Source: Anaerobacillus sp. (GTDB lineage Bacteria > Bacillota > Bacilli > Bacillales > Anaerobacillaceae). Taken from it: 9,181 bases of DNA. Every line of letters begins with the position of its first letter. Position 1 is the first letter of the stretch. The position numbers were made by a program, and so were the translations under genes. Shown one piece after another: positions 1 through 9,181 of the stretch. The stretch lies in assembly GCA_007118195.1 (NCBI GenBank), contig SKSA01000233.1, positions 1-9,181 of the forward strand, written 5' to 3'. Under the pieces are notes generated by a model. The model did not search any database and was not told the DNA's origin. It worked only from the letters and a program-made list of their open reading frames with translations.

Positions 1-1979
1 AGGCCATAACATACCGATAATCCTAACCCTGTTCCTTTTCCTAACGGTTTTGTCGTATAGAAAGGGTCAAACACTTTGGACAAGTTTTCTTCCGCAATTC
101 CTTCCCCTGTATCTGAAATGGAAATCACTACATGGTTAAACCGTTCCACGAATTTCGTTTCAATACTAAGAGTTCCTTCGCTTTCTTCCATCGCGTCAAT
201 CCCATTATTCATGATATTAACAAATACTTGCATAAGGTTTAGAGCATCTCCTTTAATAAAAGGGAGATCAGATTTAAGATTGGTTTCTAATTGAATTTGT
301 TTCTTTTTTAAGGCGTGGCCTACGAGTTCGATACTGCTTTGAACGACTTCATTCACATCAATATCCTGTATACTCCATTCCGATTTCCGTGAAAAGTTTA
401 GTAAGTTCCTCGTTATTTTTTTACAACGATCCGTGTTTTCATCAATGATCTTTAAATATTGTTGAAGTTCATCAGCTTCGACCGTCTCTTCCTCTTCCAT
501 ACGATCGAGTAAATCTTCTGCATATACTTTTATTGTTGCTAATGGATTGTTCACTTCATGAGCAAAGCTAGACGCCATTAATCCAAGCGCACTTAATTTA
601 TCCGCTTGAATAAGCGCTTCTTCCATTTCTTTTTCTTCAGTAATATCTTCAATGACAATGAGTGATTCTTCATTTGCTGAATGTTTTAAGGGATAAACAC
701 GGTGTCTAAAAATCTTTTTTCGACCTTTTTCATCCTTTTTGACTAAATACTCGTTAATGTCTTTTCCGTTGTTTTCTAAAATACCTGGGCAATCGCAACA
801 AGGCTCTTCTTTATTATTAAATAGTTTATAACAAGGTAAAGCTTCATTCGTATTCAGCCAACCTTTTAACGTTTCATTCGTCCACGTCACTTGATAATCA
901 GACCTTACTACAGCTAAACCTGCGCCAATACTACTAACAATAATATTTAATCTTTCTTTTTCTTGCAGTAGTTGATCTGTTTTTTCCGAAATTTCTTGAC
1001 TCATTTCATTAAAACTTTTCGCCAATTCACCAAATTCATCTTTACGATAAACGTTAATCTTTCGTTGCTCAGCGCCATGTTTGATATTTTTCATCGCCCT
1101 CTGTAAAATTTCAATCGGATGAACGAAGTATAAACCAGCATAGATACTAATAACACTTATTAAAGCAATAATAAAGAGCGCAACAAAGATACTATTCCAA
1201 ACTAACCTGTACATCGGAGCAAATAAATCTTCAGTCGGTTGCTCCAGTACTAAATGCCATTGGAGATCTTTTAAATCGGTTGATTTGCGAATCACTTCTT
1301 CCCCTTTTTGTACGAAAAAGTCTTCTTGTTGCCAAAGCTGCGTATAGTCTTGATGGGCAATAATTCGATCAAAAGAATCGACCATAAAAACATAACCTGG
1401 CTCGTTTAGGTAATATGATGATATTTCACCAATTAGCTTTTGTAACTGTAATGTCACACCAACTGTTGCTTGTTGTTCCTTCGAATGTTCATCAGCGATT
1501 GGTAATGCAACTTTCATCACTGGTTGTCCATAAATGTTAAATTGTACTTCACTTAACATGAGAGGATTTCTTATTGTCGCTTGGCGCATTGAAGGGGGAA
1601 ACCAACTCTGTTTTTCTTCTAATTTATTTAATTGGTAACGCGATACTCTCTTCGACACTAATCCTGCTTCATCTAAAACAACAATTTCTTCAATCAAAGC
1701 GTTCTCTTTCAGTATGCTATATAGAAGACCTCGTTCTTCATCGATGTTTGAAATTTGAGCAAGCATATGAACAAGCTGAAATGTTTGCTCCATTTCCAAG
1801 TTAATTTGGTTTGCAAAATTATTAAGTAAGAGTGTTTGTCGCTCCCCAATCCTTTCTTCCATATCTCCTTGAACTTGCACAAGGTAATAGCTTGTCATAA
1901 AAATCAAGGGGATCGTTGACATAATGATCCCAAATAGAAGAACTTGATTTCTTATTTTTAAAAAAGGGGATATTTTCAC
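1..1979 (-). CDS. Sensor histidine kinase with Cache, HAMP and PAS domains (3' end outside window)
   Basis: A membrane sensor kinase that autophosphorylates a histidine and passes the phosphate to a response regulator not seen here. I translated 659 codons without a stop; the C-terminal tail lies beyond the left edge. Order: TM1 (about residues 12-34); extracellular Cache-like domain (about 35-258, with GYVFMVDSFDRIIAHQD, typical of dCache); TM2 (about 261-284); HAMP (to about 340); PAS (about 355-455) holding Cys383, Cys394, Cys395 and Cys397; H-box FAHEVNNPLATIK with His474; N-box around Asn592; G1 DTGEGIA with Asp623; G2 GKGTGLGLS near 647-655. The AHEVNNP form resembles NtrB/DctB-type kinases, so an NtrC-like partner is possible (inference). 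The GTG start overlaps the TGA of the upstream binding-protein gene (1976-1978), and a GGGGGG ribosome site lies about 7 bases before it, supporting this start and translational coupling. The signal sensed is unknown. Confidence 0.93.
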   Translation of the reverse strand, partial: MKISPFLKIRNQVLLFGIIMSTIPLIFMTSYYLVQVQGDMEERIGERQTLLLNNFANQINLEMEQTFQLVHMLAQISNIDEERGLLYSILKENALIEEIVVLDEAGLVSKRVSRYQLNKLEEKQSWFPPSMRQATIRNPLMLSEVQFNIYGQPVMKVALPIADEHSKEQQATVGVTLQLQKLIGEISSYYLNEPGYVFMVDSFDRIIAHQDYTQLWQQEDFFVQKGEEVIRKSTDLKDLQWHLVLEQPTEDLFAPMYRLVWNSIFVALFIIALISVISIYAGLYFVHPIEILQRAMKNIKHGAEQRKINVYRKDEFGELAKSFNEMSQEISEKTDQLLQEKERLNIIVSSIGAGLAVVRSDYQVTWTNETLKGWLNTNEALPCYKLFNNKEEPCCDCPGILENNGKDINEYLVKKDEKGRKKIFRHRVYPLKHSANEESLIVIEDITEEKEMEEALIQADKLSALGLMASSFAHEVNNPLATIKVYAEDLLDRMEEEETVEADELQQYLKIIDENTDRCKKITRNLLNFSRKSEWSIQDIDVNEVVQSSIELVGHALKKKQIQLETNLKSDLPFIKGDALNLMQVFVNIMNNGIDAMEESEGTLSIETKFVERFNHVVISISDTGEGIAEENLSKVFDPFYTTKPLGKGTGLGLSVCYG

Positions 1980-2974
1980 CTAGTATCCCCCCTAATTTTT
2001 TCAGCCAAATTTAAAATATCCACATTTAGTTCGATATTTAAAGCTTTTTGAGTGTCTTCATTTACAAAAAACTCGATCGAATCAGGAAGCTCGACGGGGA
2101 GTGCAGCAGGGTCATTTCCTTGTAAAATAAGACTCACATGCCTAGCTGCTTGATAGCCTTGTCCAAAATAGGAAGAACCGTAACCAAATAAGTAACCTGC
2201 CTCTACTTCATGATCATAAAGCGCCATCGAAGGTAGTTGCCACCTTAATAATAATTTAGCAATCATATCTGCCATTGCTTCAATTTGATAACTTGGTAAA
2301 ATCATCAAGCCATCACTATCTAATAAGTGACTCTCCAACATTTCTAAAGAAGGATCCGCATGAAAATCATAAGGAAAGATATCGACATTTAATTTCTGTG
2401 CAGTTTCTTTTACTATTTTTAAACTCATTGCACTTATATCGATATTGCTATTATATAAAACAACGACTCTTTCCATTTCAGGGACAAGGTCTACAAACAT
2501 TTCTAGTCGTTTAGCTGATAAATTCATATGAAAATTATTAACACCTGTAAACGTTGACCCTGGTGCGTGATACTCTTCGATTAAACCTAGTTCAATCGGA
2601 GCTGCAATGCCAACAAATACAACGGGAACGTTCTTTTTAGATTGATTCATTACTTCTTGTACTTGTTGTGTTTCAATCCCACCTAAAGTAACAATTAAAT
2701 CTAAATTATCCTCTACTAATTCTTTCGCACCTAGTTGCATTCGAGCGACGTCATCTTTCGCATCTTTCATAATAAAATCAAACTTTTCAATTTGATAACC
2801 TAATTGAATTAATCCACTTTTCATCCCTTCTAACTTTTCAAAACGATTTTCTCCGGTCATTAAGACACCAATTCGATATTTATTTTCAACCCCTAGATTA
2901 TCGAGATAAATAAATATGGTAAAAAACATAATGATCGAAGCGAAGATCCATATCATAATTCCAAGCTTTTTCAT
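1976..2974 (-). CDS. Membrane-anchored ABC_sub_bind-family periplasmic-type binding protein
   Basis: A 332-residue extracytoplasmic binding protein of the ABC_sub_bind type (Pfam PF04392, COG2984), usually linked to amino-acid or similar small-molecule uptake. An N-terminal hydrophobic segment (about residues 5-24) is followed by YRIGVL, the usual first strand. Further family landmarks are DLIVTLGG (about 93-100), VPVVFVGIAAP and GLIEEYHAPGSTFTGV in the first lobe, and VVVLYN and GLMILPS in the second. There is no lipobox cysteine at the end of the hydrophobic segment, so it is more likely an uncleaved anchor than a lipoprotein. An AGGAG site (2983-2987) stands 8 bases before the ATG. The downstream kinase start overlaps its stop codon, and no permease or ATPase gene is adjacent. 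I infer that it captures a ligand for the kinase. A transport role with components elsewhere remains possible. Confidence 0.88.
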   Translation of the reverse strand: MKKLGIMIWIFASIIMFFTIFIYLDNLGVENKYRIGVLMTGENRFEKLEGMKSGLIQLGYQIEKFDFIMKDAKDDVARMQLGAKELVEDNLDLIVTLGGIETQQVQEVMNQSKKNVPVVFVGIAAPIELGLIEEYHAPGSTFTGVNNFHMNLSAKRLEMFVDLVPEMERVVVLYNSNIDISAMSLKIVKETAQKLNVDIFPYDFHADPSLEMLESHLLDSDGLMILPSYQIEAMADMIAKLLLRWQLPSMALYDHEVEAGYLFGYGSSYFGQGYQAARHVSLILQGNDPAALPVELPDSIEFFVNEDTQKALNIELNVDILNLAEKIRGDTR

Positions 2975-4792: not shown

Positions 4793-6721
4793 ATGATACT
4801 TTTGCAATGCGTTCAATTGACGAAAAATTTTGGTGCTGAACCAATATTATCGAATATAAAACTAGAAGTCCAATCCAAAGATCGTGTAGCGATTGTTGGT
4901 CGCAATGGAGCTGGGAAATCAACATTACTAAAAATAATTGCAGGAAAGCTTTCTTATAATTCCGGGGACATTGTTATTCCAAAAGATGTCACGATGGGGT
5001 ATTTAGCCCAAGATACTGGTTTAGAATCAGAGCGATCGATTTGGGATGAGATGCTATTTGTTTTTGATCACCTTATTACAATGGAAATGGAATTACGAAA
5101 CCTCGAAACTAAAATGTCGGATCCTGATTATATCAACGATGAAAGTAACTATGAAAAACTTTTAAATGAATACGATCTTCTCTCAGAAACTTTTAAACAA
5201 AAGGGCGGTTATCAATATGAAGCGGATATTCGCGGCATTCTTTCTGGGTTGAATTTTTCTGATAAAGATTATTCTACAAAAATATCAACGTTAAGTGGCG
5301 GACAAAAAACACGACTTGCATTAGGAAAGTTGTTATTAACTCGCCCCGACCTACTTATTTTGGACGAGCCGACGAACCACTTAGACTTAGAAACACTTGC
5401 ATGGCTCGAACAATATTTACTTCATTATGATGGTGCTATTTTGATCGTTTCTCACGACCGCTATTTTTTAGATAAAGTGACAAACATTGTTTATGAAATT
5501 TCTCGTACAAAAGCAACTAAATTTGTCGGAAACTATAGTTACTATTTAGAAGAAAAAGCAAAACGCTATGAACTAGAAATGAAACAATACGAAAAACAAC
5601 AAGATGAAATTGATAAGCTTCAAACTTTTGTGCAAAAAAATATTGCTAGAGCTTCAACTACAAAACGTGCTCAAAGTAGACGTAAGCAATTAGAACGAAT
5701 GGAAAAACTTGATAAACCTCAAGGAGATGAAAAATCAGCAAATTTCTCTTTTGAAATTAAAAAGCAAACCGGAAATGATGTCCTTAGAGTCGAACAACTT
5801 TCTGGCGGGTACTCCCCTCGTGAGATATTATTTGAAAATTTTAATTTAGCGATAAATCGCGCAGAAAGCATTGCCTTACTCGGACCAAACGGAATTGGTA
5901 AATCGACTCTTTTAAAAACAATTACTAAGGAAATAGAGCCTTTAGCAGGGTCCATTAAATACGGCAGCAATGTCGCCATTGGCTATTACGATCAAGAACA
6001 AGCAAAGCTCACCTCGAATAAACAAGTTTTATACGAGCTTTGGGATGAGTATCCGTTAACTCCTGAAAAAGAAATTCGTACAATTTTAGGGAACTTTCTT
6101 TTTAGCGGTGACGATGTGCTGAAAAATGTTTCTGATTTAAGTGGCGGTGAAAAAGCACGAGTTGCATTAGCAAAATTAATGATGCAAAAAGCAAATTTCC
6201 TAATCTTAGACGAACCTACAAACCATCTTGATTTAGATAGTAAAGAAATACTAGAGAGTGCCTTATTAGATTATCCTGGGACCATATTGTTTGTATCGCA
6301 TGACCGCTATTTCGTTAACCGTATGGCCACTCGTGTCGTCGAAATGGCAAAAGAAGGCCTAATTGATTATATCGGTGACTACGATTATTACATTATGAAA
6401 AAACAAGAAAACTTCGAACGAGAGCAGCTTAAAGAAACGGAAGAAGAAAAGATTGAACAACTAGAAGATCAACCAAATAAACAATCCTTTTTACAAGATA
6501 AAGAAGCGAAGCGAAAAGAACGTCAACGCTTGAGACGCCTTGAAGAAATCGAACAAAATGTAGAACAGCTAGAACTCTCTGTAGCAGAAAGAGAAGACGC
6601 CCTATGTGATCCTGAAATTTACCAAGATCACACTCGGGTTAGTGAATTAAACAACGAAATAGAAAAGCTAAAAAAAGAACTAGATGACTTAATGGAAGAA
6701 TGGACGGAATTAGAAGTTTAA
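4793..6721 (+). CDS. ydiF: ABC-F family ATPase, YdiF type
   Basis: ABC-F proteins are soluble twin-ATPase factors that act on the ribosome, not transporters. The 642-residue protein has ABC1 with Walker A GRNGAGKST (36-44), signature LSGGQ (167-171) and Walker B LLILDEPTNHLD (187-198). A charged linker (about 245-320) corresponds to the P-site tRNA-interacting motif, including the KNIARASTTKRAQSRRKQLE segment. ABC2 has GPNGIGKST (364-372), LSGGE (449-453) and LILDEPTNHLD (470-480). A coiled-coil C-terminal tail covers about 540-640. There are no membrane segments. Both catalytic glutamates are present. The start MILLQ and the overall length match B. subtilis YdiF as I recall it; a weak AGGATGA site precedes the ATG. 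It diverges from moaC, a conserved neighbourhood. Whether it affects antibiotic tolerance cannot be told; a housekeeping translation role is more likely than a dedicated resistance factor. Confidence 0.93.
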   Translation: MILLQCVQLTKNFGAEPILSNIKLEVQSKDRVAIVGRNGAGKSTLLKIIAGKLSYNSGDIVIPKDVTMGYLAQDTGLESERSIWDEMLFVFDHLITMEMELRNLETKMSDPDYINDESNYEKLLNEYDLLSETFKQKGGYQYEADIRGILSGLNFSDKDYSTKISTLSGGQKTRLALGKLLLTRPDLLILDEPTNHLDLETLAWLEQYLLHYDGAILIVSHDRYFLDKVTNIVYEISRTKATKFVGNYSYYLEEKAKRYELEMKQYEKQQDEIDKLQTFVQKNIARASTTKRAQSRRKQLERMEKLDKPQGDEKSANFSFEIKKQTGNDVLRVEQLSGGYSPREILFENFNLAINRAESIALLGPNGIGKSTLLKTITKEIEPLAGSIKYGSNVAIGYYDQEQAKLTSNKQVLYELWDEYPLTPEKEIRTILGNFLFSGDDVLKNVSDLSGGEKARVALAKLMMQKANFLILDEPTNHLDLDSKEILESALLDYPGTILFVSHDRYFVNRMATRVVEMAKEGLIDYIGDYDYYIMKKQENFEREQLKETEEEKIEQLEDQPNKQSFLQDKEAKRKERQRLRRLEEIEQNVEQLELSVAEREDALCDPEIYQDHTRVSELNNEIEKLKKELDDLMEEWTELEV

Positions 6722-6724
6722 AAT

Positions 6725-6888
6725 TAGTTTTGAGTTTTGAGTGAAGAGTGTTGAGTTATTTGTGGGCTATGCTCCGAAGTGAAAAAAATTGTTGAACAGA
6801 CGTTCACATGATAGGAGACTGCCTCGAAGCGTACCATTCACCAACTCAAAACTCAACATTCAAAACTCAACACTATAAATCAAAACTA
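6725..6888. repeat. 164-bp inverted-repeat element built of 7-bp units
   Basis: The gap between two convergent genes is bounded by TAGTTTTGA (6725-6733) and its exact complement TCAAAACTA (6880-6888). Inner perfect arms are AGTGTTGAGTT (6747-6757) with AACTCAACACT (6864-6874), collinear with the ends, and TGAGTTTTGAGT (6731-6742) with ACTCAAAACTCA (6844-6855). Each arm is a run of variants of a 7-base unit, TTTTGAG or TGTTGAG. The 85-base core (6758-6842) has no ORF of note and a small TGAAC/GTTCA hairpin. There is no transposase. The right end supplies the stop codon (TAG, 6886-6888) of the membrane-protein gene. It may be a dispersed MITE-like or palindromic repeat and could help end transcription from both sides, though no T run follows either arm. 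Confidence 0.75.
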
Positions 6889-9024
6889 CCCTTCTTCTAA
6901 CGCCCAGTAATAACTCGTACACACGATGATGAACATTGAAGTCGCTGCGGCTACTACCCCTGAATCATTTAATAGGAGCAAAGAAATGGAAGCAACGACT
7001 CCTGTTTGAATTAAAACTCGCTTTACTTCATTACGTACAATATTTTTCCCCCGCCATAAATACAAAGCAATTAAAAGATAAGTCGTCACAAATAACTGTG
7101 TCCAATTACTATAGCGGAAGATTTTCCAATTCATCTCTAACTTTCGTTTGATGATATCAAAAATATACGTAAAATCACCGCTAAATAACTTCGAAAATGC
7201 GTAACTAATATGAGACTCCTTCCCATTCAACTGTGTAAAAAACAAAATGACTAACACGATGGGCACAACGAAACTAACGATCATCAATAATTTGCGCCAC
7301 TGAAAACTAGAAAAGAAATAACGATAATAAAAAAAGCCAAACATGATCCCCACAGATAGCGTTGCCCCTGCATTTGCCCCTAAAAAAGTTGAACTTAAAA
7401 TGACAACTTTACCAAAAGCGAGAACGATTAATACTAACCACTTATTCATGAAGCGGTGCTGTAATAAAAGCAACCCAGAAATCAAGTAAATACCCGCAAA
7501 CTCATTACCGATTCCGTAATACCTAGCACCGATAATCGGATCATAACCTAAATAAGAACGCTGCATAAAATAGTTACCTAAAAATAAATCCAACGTAATA
7601 CTAATAAAAAGAGCTCCACTTATCTTCAATATAGGATGATGTACAAACTTCACTAATAAGTACCCCGTCAAAAAGCTACACAAAATAAGTAACAGCAAAT
7701 AAACATTCGGCTGTACATAATTCAATAAATATGGAGTTATTAAAAACCATAACGGAGAACTAATTCCACCAATGAGAAGTATTTGAGCGACACTCTTCCA
7801 CGTCTCTTTTTTATCCTTAATTAAAATGATCAAACCCACAATGATTAATAGTAGTACAAGCAAAGTAATATAGCTAGATAAGACCATATTTCTCGTTTTA
7901 AAAATAAGAAACATTAAATCGAGTTTTTTTAATCCTTCCTCTAAAACCGATGTACTAATGGCCTCTTTTTGCAACGACTTTCCTATTAATTGTTTCGGTT
8001 GTGGAATTTGATAAACGTTTAAAACCGTAGGAACAATATCTAAATTACTAATCACAAAATCCTGTCTCGTTGTATGTGATCGCAAAAGAATGTTCTGATT
8101 TAGTGCATCTTTTTCCCAATAAAAAAATGGAGCGAGACGCTCTTTATTTTGATAAGCATCACTGTGGACCATTGGGGATAACAACATTAAGTTTTCTACA
8201 TGACCTTCTGTTAATAACTTTTCTACAAACGATTCTAAGTTTCGTAAGCTTAACTCATACCGCTCAACGAAAAAACGTTCGGTCATATTCTCTTTTTGTT
8301 TATATAAACGGAATATGTCCCCCCATTCAATCACAGTAAAACTTGGTTCATTTTTTCCATGAATGATCGACAACCATTGAGTGAGGTTATCCACATCCAT
8401 TTCTACTCCTGACGGCGCACTTTTACTTTTTTTTGTTGCGTCTAAAAGGAAACCATCAGTTAACCCCTCATTATCCATCGTAAAAAGTGGACCGTAACGC
8501 ACACTTTCATCATGTACGTCACTATTTCCGAAAACGTAACGGCTAACACCATTTTTCTTCAAGGTTTCACCTAGGATGCTTATCTCAGCTTTATTTTTAT
8601 CCACAAGCTTATGAAATAATGGGTGAAAAACCACATCTTTTTCCACAACATTCCCAGTCCATTGTTGAAAAAGATCTTCTACGAAAACGTTATCAACAAG
8701 TTCTCCACTTGTATAAGCGTTCCAACCTTCCACACCTAATGCTCGCATACCTGCACTTAAACTAACTGTATTATTTAAATAAGAATAAGGGCCATCCGGA
8801 CGAATGTTTACCCCGGCCATTCCACTAGTTTTCCACAGCTGTAAAAACTGTCCATTCTCTTTCAACCATTTGACTTCTTGAAACGAAAAATCTGGAACAA
8901 TAATTAACGTCAACTGTTGGTTTCCTTCATATTCTTGCTTTCCTTCATATGCTTGCACAGCTTTTCCACAAAGTATTAACAAAACTATTATAAAAATAAG
9001 ACTCGTTTTCTTAATCATCTTCAT
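6886..9024 (-). CDS. Exported alkaline-phosphatase-fold-like ectodomain fused to a polytopic membrane domain
   Basis: A 712-residue protein of unknown function. A signal sequence (1-25, hydrophobic core then AVQA before Tyr26) is followed by an extracytoplasmic domain (about 26-375). This domain has sulfatase/alkaline-phosphatase-like landmarks: IIVPDFS with Asp45, YLNNTVSLSAG (82-92) where a nucleophile Thr86 or Ser88 would lie, and SNLDIVPTVL (326-335) before IGKSL (347-351), like the C-terminal part of that fold. The DHG-type metal motif is not visible; LLSPMVHSD (281-289) stands in about that place. About ten membrane segments follow (roughly 380 to 707), with conserved-looking polar stretches GARYYGIGNEFAG (499-511) and FLGANAGATL (547-556). 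Start choice rests on a weak GGTGGA site (9035-9040) 10 bases upstream. It stands alone, convergent with the ABC-F gene. Envelope polymer work or sensing is possible, but this is a guess. Confidence 0.85.
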   Translation of the reverse strand: MKMIKKTSLIFIIVLLILCGKAVQAYEGKQEYEGNQQLTLIIVPDFSFQEVKWLKENGQFLQLWKTSGMAGVNIRPDGPYSYLNNTVSLSAGMRALGVEGWNAYTSGELVDNVFVEDLFQQWTGNVVEKDVVFHPLFHKLVDKNKAEISILGETLKKNGVSRYVFGNSDVHDESVRYGPLFTMDNEGLTDGFLLDATKKSKSAPSGVEMDVDNLTQWLSIIHGKNEPSFTVIEWGDIFRLYKQKENMTERFFVERYELSLRNLESFVEKLLTEGHVENLMLLSPMVHSDAYQNKERLAPFFYWEKDALNQNILLRSHTTRQDFVISNLDIVPTVLNVYQIPQPKQLIGKSLQKEAISTSVLEEGLKKLDLMFLIFKTRNMVLSSYITLLVLLLIIVGLIILIKDKKETWKSVAQILLIGGISSPLWFLITPYLLNYVQPNVYLLLLILCSFLTGYLLVKFVHHPILKISGALFISITLDLFLGNYFMQRSYLGYDPIIGARYYGIGNEFAGIYLISGLLLLQHRFMNKWLVLIVLAFGKVVILSSTFLGANAGATLSVGIMFGFFYYRYFFSSFQWRKLLMIVSFVVPIVLVILFFTQLNGKESHISYAFSKLFSGDFTYIFDIIKRKLEMNWKIFRYSNWTQLFVTTYLLIALYLWRGKNIVRNEVKRVLIQTGVVASISLLLLNDSGVVAAATSMFIIVCTSYYWALEEG

Positions 9025-9054: not shown

Positions 9055-9147
9055 ATATCCACATTATCAACAACTTTACCCACATATTAAACATTGCTAC
9101 TAAACGTTTATCAAAAGTTATTCACATATCCACCCGAGTTATCCCCA
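9055..9147 (+). promoter_or_regulatory. Cluster of DnaA-box-like 9-mers
   Basis: Compared with TTATCCACA, five 9-mers match at 8 of 9: ATATCCACA (9055), TTATCAACA (9064), TTACCCACA (9076), TTATTCACA (9118) and TTATCCCCA (9139). Two match at 7 of 9: TTATCAAAA (9108) and ATATCCACC (9126). All seven lie on the plus strand within 93 bases, spaced 8-13 bases apart except for one gap of 32. By a hand estimate even one 8-of-9 match is unlikely in this length by chance. DnaA, the replication initiator and a transcription factor, is the obvious ligand. No dnaA, dnaN or parAB genes are near, so this is more likely a non-oriC DnaA-binding cluster than the chromosomal origin. Confidence 0.7.
9086..9114 (-). 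promoter_or_regulatory. Probable promoter of the membrane-protein gene, inside the DnaA-box cluster
   Basis: On the minus strand TTGATA (9109-9114) and TTTAAT (9086-9091) are exactly 17 bases apart, each one base from consensus. Transcription would start near 9079, about 55 bases before the ATG. The DnaA-like box at 9108 overlaps the -35 and the box at 9076 covers the start point, so DnaA bound here would be expected to repress. Confidence 0.5.
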
Positions 9148-9181
9148 ATATTTTTATTAACACGATTCTCCCTTATTCGAC

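What the first reader, a model, noticed from the sequence alone, without database searches (positions are those of the whole stretch)
9055..9147. Dense one-strand cluster of DnaA boxes away from any visible origin gene
Five 8-of-9 and two 7-of-9 matches to TTATCCACA lie in 93 bases, all in the same orientation. I recall that B. subtilis has several DnaA-box clusters outside oriC that help control initiation, one of them near gcp (tsaD). That gene lies beside ydiF, the neighbourhood seen here. This may be the equivalent cluster, displaced by the inserted membrane-protein gene, and would be a conserved replication-control site.
Basis: partly seen in the sequence, partly recalled or inferred. Interest (0 to 1): 0.75.

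Follow-up and report, generated by a model that had tools for sequence, protein, structure and literature searches.

The report
Ancient fixed-geometry DnaA-box array beside tsaD
Far from the replication origin gene and likely right beside the gene tsaD, this bacterium carries a row of binding motifs for the replication starter protein DnaA; most sampled relatives keep such a row after tsaD, usually with the same orientation and spacing, so it is likely a site that holds DnaA and would help prevent chromosomes from being copied again too soon.

Summary
Window 9055-9147 holds five one-mismatch and two two-mismatch DnaA boxes on one strand; 2,000 Markov windows never gave more than two one-mismatch boxes in 93 bp.

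The window is a whole contig of an Anaerobacillus-like draft genome. In relatives the next gene is tsaD (gcp). An array (>=4 same-strand boxes in 200 bp) follows tsaD in 90 of 109 order loci, in 41 of 44 families, and in 8 of 20 loci from other orders of the class. Boxes usually run opposite to tsaD with the layout A-22-B-9-C-42-D-12-E-9-F. In 7 genus genomes the D-E-F triplet occurs once in each of 6, always in this gap. It is the counterpart of the B. subtilis gcp/ydiF cluster, a strong DnaA site in vitro (PMC4447404).

One correction: the membrane-protein gene was probably not inserted; it sits in the same place in other orders and was likely lost in ydiF-only genomes.

Most likely function: a DnaA-sequestering site copied early on one replichore. 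Binding and function are untested here. New here: depth of conservation, the geometry, and persistence with or without the neighbouring gene.

The parts
9055..9063 (+). DnaA box F (ATATCCACA); 30 bp lie between it and the start codon of the 712-aa gene
9064..9072 (+). DnaA box E (TTATCAACA), directly abutting F
9076..9084 (+). DnaA box D (TTACCCACA), 12 bp from E start to start
9108..9116 (+). two-mismatch box-like site (TTATCAAAA); not part of the conserved template
9118..9126 (+). DnaA box C (TTATTCACA), 42 bp from D start to start as in the template; across 99 fitted loci C is 8 perfect, 67 one-mismatch, 11 two-mismatch
9126..9134 (+). degenerate box (ATATCCACC) one base off template position B
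9139..9147 (+). DnaA box (TTATCCCCA), 84 bp from F; same letters at the same offset from F in A. arseniciselenatis (L003)
   Evidence: register set by hand on box F
9154..9162 (+). two-mismatch box (TTATTAACA) at the offset of TTATTCACA in L003
   Evidence: register set by hand on box F
9163..9181 (.). end of contig; by the L003 layout two further boxes (about 9196 and 9205 in extrapolated coordinates), a terminator and tsaD would follow
   Evidence: tsaD is on contig C56
6886..9024 (-). gene X: 712-aa uncharacterised protein (N-terminal secretion signal and polytopic membrane part judged by eye); the array lies just upstream of it
4793..6721 (+). ydiF-type ABC-F ATPase, converging on gene X
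8387..8970 (+). six further <=1-mismatch boxes inside the coding sequence of X (8387, 8597, 8639, 8690, 8829, 8962); several coincide by eye with conserved residues, not counted as part of the array

Best explanation
This is an array of DnaA-box motifs that likely lies just after tsaD, as its counterparts in relatives do, and it likely binds the initiator DnaA and would hold back re-initiation of replication, like the B. subtilis gcp/ydiF cluster. Shown by sequence: the boxes, their single orientation here, and in relatives the place after tsaD, the usual orientation and spacing, and a position of tsaD 0.22-0.57 Mb from dnaA on the side downstream of dnaA. Inferred: two strong boxes (A, B) anchor DnaA, and weaker co-oriented boxes load more ATP-DnaA cooperatively. 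Because the site lies near oriC it is copied soon after initiation. The number of arrays then doubles, free ATP-DnaA falls, and a second firing of oriC is delayed. In genomes with gene X, DnaA on the array probably also affects transcription of X, but this cannot be the whole function, since most genomes without X keep the array.
For: Cluster far beyond chance. tsaD neighbourhood in four named relatives. Of 109 order loci, 88 have >=4 same-strand boxes in 200 bp opposite to tsaD and 3 have >=4 along it (one counted in both), 90 in all; 41 of 44 families have the array in at least one locus; the control motif never exceeds 2. 676 boxes opposite to tsaD against 137 along it, control motif 33 in all, over the first 1,000 bp of 116 loci, two near-duplicates included. 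Spacing peaks at 9, 12, 21/22, 31, 42, 51, 54, 63 bp. 88 of 117 loci, window included, score >=9 on the template; outside the tsaD cluster nothing in 1.18 Mb of G006 exceeds 7. Independent test: in 20 loci of other orders the template beats 2,000 of 2,000 random geometries of the same span. D-E-F triplet once in each of 6 of 7 genus genomes, control 0. In 17 of 22 genomes where it could be measured, dnaA and tsaD are on one strand and tsaD lies 216-565 kb downstream of dnaA. The own DnaA has the stretch GRDHTTVIHAHEKI (that this is the box-recognition signature is recalled). Own-genome boxes also cluster at tsaC(ywlC), yyzF-rlmH and sda-yqeH loci, three further B. subtilis DnaA sites. B. subtilis: apparent Kd 0.15 uM for ATP-DnaA at gcp/ydiF and a 16-fold ATP preference at 55 nM (PMC4447404 passages); deleting six clusters causes early initiation (PMC5295017, PMC13220808 passages).
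Against: No binding or replication data for this organism. 19 of 109 order loci lack an array of >=4 boxes in the stretch read (11 of them where neither X nor ydiF was detected; one has only 73 bp) and 12 of 20 loci from other orders do not reach 4, so it is dispensable in some lineages. Of the 9 other-order loci with X only 5 reach 4 boxes. In B. [quoted passage not shown] subtilis; about 10-fold overproduction of DnaA did not cause over-initiation (PMC13220808). The template was read from the order loci, so only the test on other orders is independent. In the window only C, D, E and F match it; A and B do not. The junction with tsaD is not assembled. At least two loci have the array inverted, so orientation is not absolute.
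Confidence: 0.75

Rival explanations
1. The array is mainly an operator of gene X: DnaA bound just upstream of X switches X on or off with replication status, as at sda.
For: 30 bp separate box F from the X start codon. A terminator-like hairpin follows tsaD in L003, so X probably needs a promoter inside the gap. All 15 of 15 order loci with X have the array.
Against: 68 of 76 loci with ydiF and no X keep the array, and 69 of 76 score above 5 on the template. In B. subtilis the site lies between two 3' ends (PMC4447404), and gcp/ydiF is not in the list of directly DnaA-regulated gene sets in PMC8203912. The only promoter-like match in the window gap is at the shuffled expectation.
Confidence: 0.12
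2. A passive titration sink (a weaker form of the best explanation, overlapping with it): only the number of boxes matters, and spacing is kept by common descent alone.
For: A single cluster at various places partly relieved the early initiation of the six-cluster deletion (PMC5295017 passage).
Against: Inter-box columns carry 0.31 bits on average against 0.97 in boxes, so the sequence between boxes has drifted, while spacing and the strong/weak identity of boxes persist. A pure sink would tolerate indels.
Confidence: 0.25
3. The boxes are a chance or compositional cluster without function.
For: Genome-wide, boxes are no more frequent than the reversed control motif.
Against: Markov maximum 2 against 5 observed; array after tsaD in 41 of 44 families; D-E-F triplet found only here in 6 genus genomes.
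Confidence: 0.01
4. A cryptic or former replication origin.
For: Dense DnaA boxes.
Against: The clusters near dnaA in five genus genomes have boxes on both strands and score 6-7 on this template against 12; dnaA is on another contig (C301). No unwinding element was tested for.
Confidence: 0.02

Closest known systems
B. subtilis gcp/ydiF DnaA-box cluster (PMC4447404, PMC5295017 passages; the original deletion study, Okumura 2012, is not held and known here only through citing papers)
   Same: Same place just after tsaD (in relatives), dense DnaA boxes, oriC-proximal.
   Different: Here gene X lies between the array and ydiF, so the array is upstream of a gene rather than between two 3' ends. 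I did not have the B. subtilis sequence, so its geometry was not compared directly.
E. coli datA and DARS1/2 (non-coding DnaA-regulating loci; PMC13220808 passages)
   Same: Works-like analogy only: chromosomal loci outside oriC that act on DnaA; gcp/ydiF in B. subtilis prefers ATP-DnaA.
   Different: No nucleotide-switching activity is known to me for the Bacilli arrays; PMC13220808 states that B. subtilis lacks IHF, datA and DARS. Not filed as a member.
sda / yqeG DnaA-regulated promoter site
   Same: DnaA boxes upstream of a gene; the own genome has a counterpart at sda-yqeH (L198).
   Different: The tsaD array persists in most genomes without the downstream gene X.
oriC of the same genus
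   Same: Same box consensus.
   Different: Boxes on both strands, beside dnaA, low score on this geometry.

Membership tests
B. subtilis-type extra-oriC DnaA-box cluster (gcp/ydiF) | several DnaA boxes clustered in an intergenic region outside oriC | tested here: met
B. subtilis-type extra-oriC DnaA-box cluster (gcp/ydiF) | lies just downstream of tsaD (gcp) | tested here: met
   met in relatives; in the own genome inferred across a contig break
B. subtilis-type extra-oriC DnaA-box cluster (gcp/ydiF) | oriC-proximal position | tested here: met
   in relatives: 216-565 kb from dnaA in 17 of 22 genomes examined, two of these assuming circular contigs; the other 5 had the genes on different contigs or an unknown contig length. 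Of the 17, G010 and G106 have no array in the stretch read and G024 has 3 boxes. Own genome too fragmented to test.
B. subtilis-type extra-oriC DnaA-box cluster (gcp/ydiF) | bound by DnaA in vitro and in vivo | not testable with these tools
   -
B. subtilis-type extra-oriC DnaA-box cluster (gcp/ydiF) | deletion with the other clusters causes early initiation | not testable with these tools
   -
E. coli datA / DARS | promotes ATP hydrolysis on DnaA, or ADP release | not testable with these tools
   -
E. coli datA / DARS | IHF (or Fis) site within the locus | not tested
   PMC13220808 states that B. subtilis lacks IHF
chromosomal origin (oriC) | beside dnaA | tested here: not met
   dnaA on contig C301
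chromosomal origin (oriC) | box arrangement like the genus oriC | tested here: not met
   five dnaA loci are mixed-strand and score 6-7 against 12
DnaA-regulated promoter (sda type) | promoter overlapped by DnaA boxes | tested here: inconclusive
   one promoter-like match, at the shuffled expectation

The most novel reading that the evidence does not exclude
The tsaD array is a geometry-coded DnaA machine of the Bacilli, the missing counterpart of datA/DARS: its A-22-B-9-C-42-D-12-E-9-F layout assembles a defined ATP-DnaA oligomer that changes DnaA's nucleotide or filament state after each passage of the fork, rather than merely soaking up DnaA.
Probability: 0.22. Interest if true: 0.88.

Novelty: new member of a known kind. 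Interest (0 to 1): 0.62.

Why it matters
Extra-oriC DnaA-box clusters have been studied in B. subtilis. A 2026 review (PMC13220808, passages) says it remains unknown whether B. subtilis has regulators that balance DnaA-ATP and DnaA-ADP. Spacing kept to the base across families and orders, with a recurring code of strong and weak boxes, makes a sharp prediction: spacing matters. That is directly testable with a handful of mutants in a laboratory B. subtilis strain. The comparison also offers a history for the B. subtilis site between two gene ends: it likely once lay upstream of gene X, which was lost while the array stayed.

Tried and rejected
Insertion of the membrane-protein gene as cause of displacement: judged less likely. 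Chance cluster: rejected. Cryptic origin: rejected on context and strand pattern. Known RNA: no Rfam match in the window. A variable-gap three-box pattern was ill chosen: it missed the window's own cluster and in some genomes hit no more often than its control. A score above 5 on the geometry template (99 of 117 loci) proved too lax, since 7 occurs elsewhere in G006 and in the rest of the window; I rely on >=9. The periodicity near 10.75-11 bp had no null and is not used as evidence. Function of gene X: no Pfam or NCBIfam match, no PDB sequence match; source names are hypothetical protein, 'Phosphoglyceromutase', 'O-antigen polymerase' or a photosystem name (which scored 7,997 candidates); no structure prediction was run. 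Literature on conservation of these clusters outside B. subtilis: none seen in the listings (several lists capped); two key papers, known by recall or citation, are not held, so no claim of absence from print is made beyond those searches.

Full report
What is there. The window is the whole of contig C229 in a 2.70 Mb, 393-contig draft genome that is 62% complete. Its right end carries, on the + strand, one-mismatch DnaA boxes at 9055, 9064, 9076, 9118 and 9139 and two-mismatch boxes at 9108, 9126 and 9154. They lie upstream of a 712-aa gene (6886-9024, minus strand; here called X), which converges on a ydiF-type ABC-F gene; moaC and rex lie further left. The gene order recalls the B. subtilis ydiF region (recalled).

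Chance. Boxes with at most one mismatch are not enriched genome-wide: 370 + 365 against 399 + 403 for the reversed motif. Five on one strand in 93 bp has an expected count of about 6e-7 per genome under a uniform rate, and 2,000 Markov windows never exceeded 2. In 1.18 Mb (27%) of the single-contig relative G006 the tsaD cluster is the only place with >=4 same-strand boxes in 93 bp. The other two places with >=4 boxes in 200 bp, both mixed-strand, are just upstream of dnaA and at a locus whose ORFs resemble the own htrA-yyzF-rlmH locus.

The missing neighbour. Relatives with X are Anaerobacillus arseniciselenatis, A. alkalilacustris, Alteribacter natronophilus and Evansella clarkii. In the two Anaerobacillus loci the ORF lists show tsaD immediately before the gap, and tblastn finds it in all four. 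NCBIfam TIGR03723 confirms the L003 protein as TsaD. In the own genome tsaD lies at the very start of contig C56, with 57 bp beyond its stop; the join to 9181 is inferred from these relatives. By the L003 layout two more boxes should lie in the unassembled piece.

Conservation. I read the stretch after tsaD in 109 loci of the order. One search found TsaD in 119 of 120 genomes; the own genome is cut by its contig end and nine were not fetched. 88 loci have >=4 same-strand boxes in 200 bp opposite to tsaD and 3 have >=4 along it (one locus has both), 90 in all; the control motif never exceeds 2. 41 of 44 families have an array in at least one locus. By neighbour: X 15 of 15, ydiF 68 of 76, neither seen 7 of 18. 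Two loci (L074, L104) fit the layout as whole-unit inversions. In 20 loci from other orders 8 reach >=4, 4 have 3, and 8 have 0-2.

Geometry. Same-strand spacings pile up at 9, 12, 21/22, 31, 42, 51, 54 and 63 bp. Read along tsaD this is A-22-B-9-C-42-D-12-E-9-F. 88 of 117 loci, window included, score >=9 on this template; outside the tsaD cluster nothing in the scanned part of G006 exceeds 7. The template came from the order loci, so the independent test is the other orders: mean best score 6.65, against a mean of 4.58 and a maximum of 6.05 for 2,000 random geometries. Box columns carry 0.97 bits on average and the others 0.31. Among sites with <=2 mismatches in 99 fitted loci, A is perfect in 39 of 61, B in 50 of 79, C in 8 of 86 (67 have one mismatch), D in 16 of 72, E in 12 of 72 and F in 2 of 42. 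So A and B are strong, the rest weaker, and A and F are not universal. The window matches at C, D, E and F; B is degenerate and one base off, and A is absent. In the 7 genus genomes the D-E-F triplet with <=3 mismatches occurs once in each of 6 and not in G003, always in this gap, with no control hit.

Place on the chromosome. In 17 of 22 genomes looked at, dnaA and tsaD are on one contig and the distance can be measured. In all 17 they are on the same strand and tsaD lies 216-565 kb downstream of dnaA; two distances (G006, G051) assume a circular contig. G010 and G106 among them have no array in the stretch read, and G024 has three boxes.

Gene X. X has no family match and no PDB sequence match. 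In 9 of 20 loci of other orders X again follows tsaD, on the same strand; 5 of these 9 have >=4 boxes, 3 have three and one has two. The 19 X copies sampled in this order form one side of a branch (100/98), with the 8 from other orders and 5 more distant ones outside, where several forks are unresolved. The simplest reading is that tsaD-array-X is old and X was lost in the ydiF-only genomes. Most of those genomes kept the array, so its function does not depend on X. Repeated transfer of X to the same spot is not formally excluded.

Mechanism. Shown in B. subtilis by others: gcp/ydiF is among the eight high-affinity DnaA regions in vitro, with apparent Kd 0.15 uM for ATP-DnaA against 0.33 uM for ADP-DnaA, and 16-fold more DNA recovered with ATP-DnaA at 55 nM (PMC4447404 passages). 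Removing six clusters causes early initiation, strongly only when all six are gone (PMC5295017 and PMC13220808 passages); [quoted passage not shown] subtilis. Inferred here: strong boxes anchor and weak co-oriented boxes extend an ATP-DnaA assembly; early duplication of the site lowers free ATP-DnaA after initiation. Exact spacing suggests a defined assembly rather than a loose sink; that step is untested.

The network. The own genome has further box clusters at a TsaC-type (ywlC)/acetyltransferase-like/spoIIR locus (L197), an htrA-like/yyzF/rlmH locus (L196) and an sda-yqeH locus (L198, three boxes). These match three more regions of PMC4447404 Table 1. With gcp/ydiF, four of the six high-affinity regions in that table that are not at dnaA appear to be shared with this distant genus.

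Noticed in passing
L197 (own genome C390) 1012-1343: Mixed-strand DnaA-box cluster between a TsaC-type threonylcarbamoyl-AMP synthase gene and an acetyltransferase-like gene (below model cut-offs), near spoIIR: looks like the counterpart of the B. subtilis ywlC cluster.
   Followed up: partly
L196 (own genome C260) 1734-2013; G006 about 285,592-285,747: DnaA-box cluster around yyzF between an htrA-like gene and rlmH (yydA), the likely counterpart of the B. subtilis yydA cluster, seen in both genomes.
   Followed up: partly
L198 (own genome C329) 1920-2017: Three DnaA boxes between an sda gene (PF08970) and yqeH: likely counterpart of the sda/yqeG site.
   Followed up: partly
window right end; L197: Two of the DnaA-box clusters sit beside genes of the same tRNA modification (t6A): tsaD (in relatives) and tsaC. 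Chance or a link between translation state and replication is open.
   Followed up: no
L074 148-316 and L104 126-239 (bases counted after the tsaD stop): The array appears inverted as a unit with its internal geometry kept, which suggests that orientation relative to tsaD is not essential.
   Followed up: partly
bases -150 to -153 relative to box D in order loci: A single opposite-strand DnaA box recurs on the tsaD-proximal side of the array (29 boxes at these four offsets among 85 anchored loci, 16 of them perfect).
   Followed up: partly
window 6886-9024: Gene X belongs to an unnamed family of about 700-aa proteins found in many alkaliphile-named Bacilli, with distant relatives in Clostridium, Thermohalobacter and Natroniella records; some sources name it phosphoglyceromutase.
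   Followed up: partly
window 3-2974: A sensor histidine kinase gene, cut by the contig end, follows an ABC substrate-binding protein gene (PF04392), a possible sensor pair.
   Followed up: no
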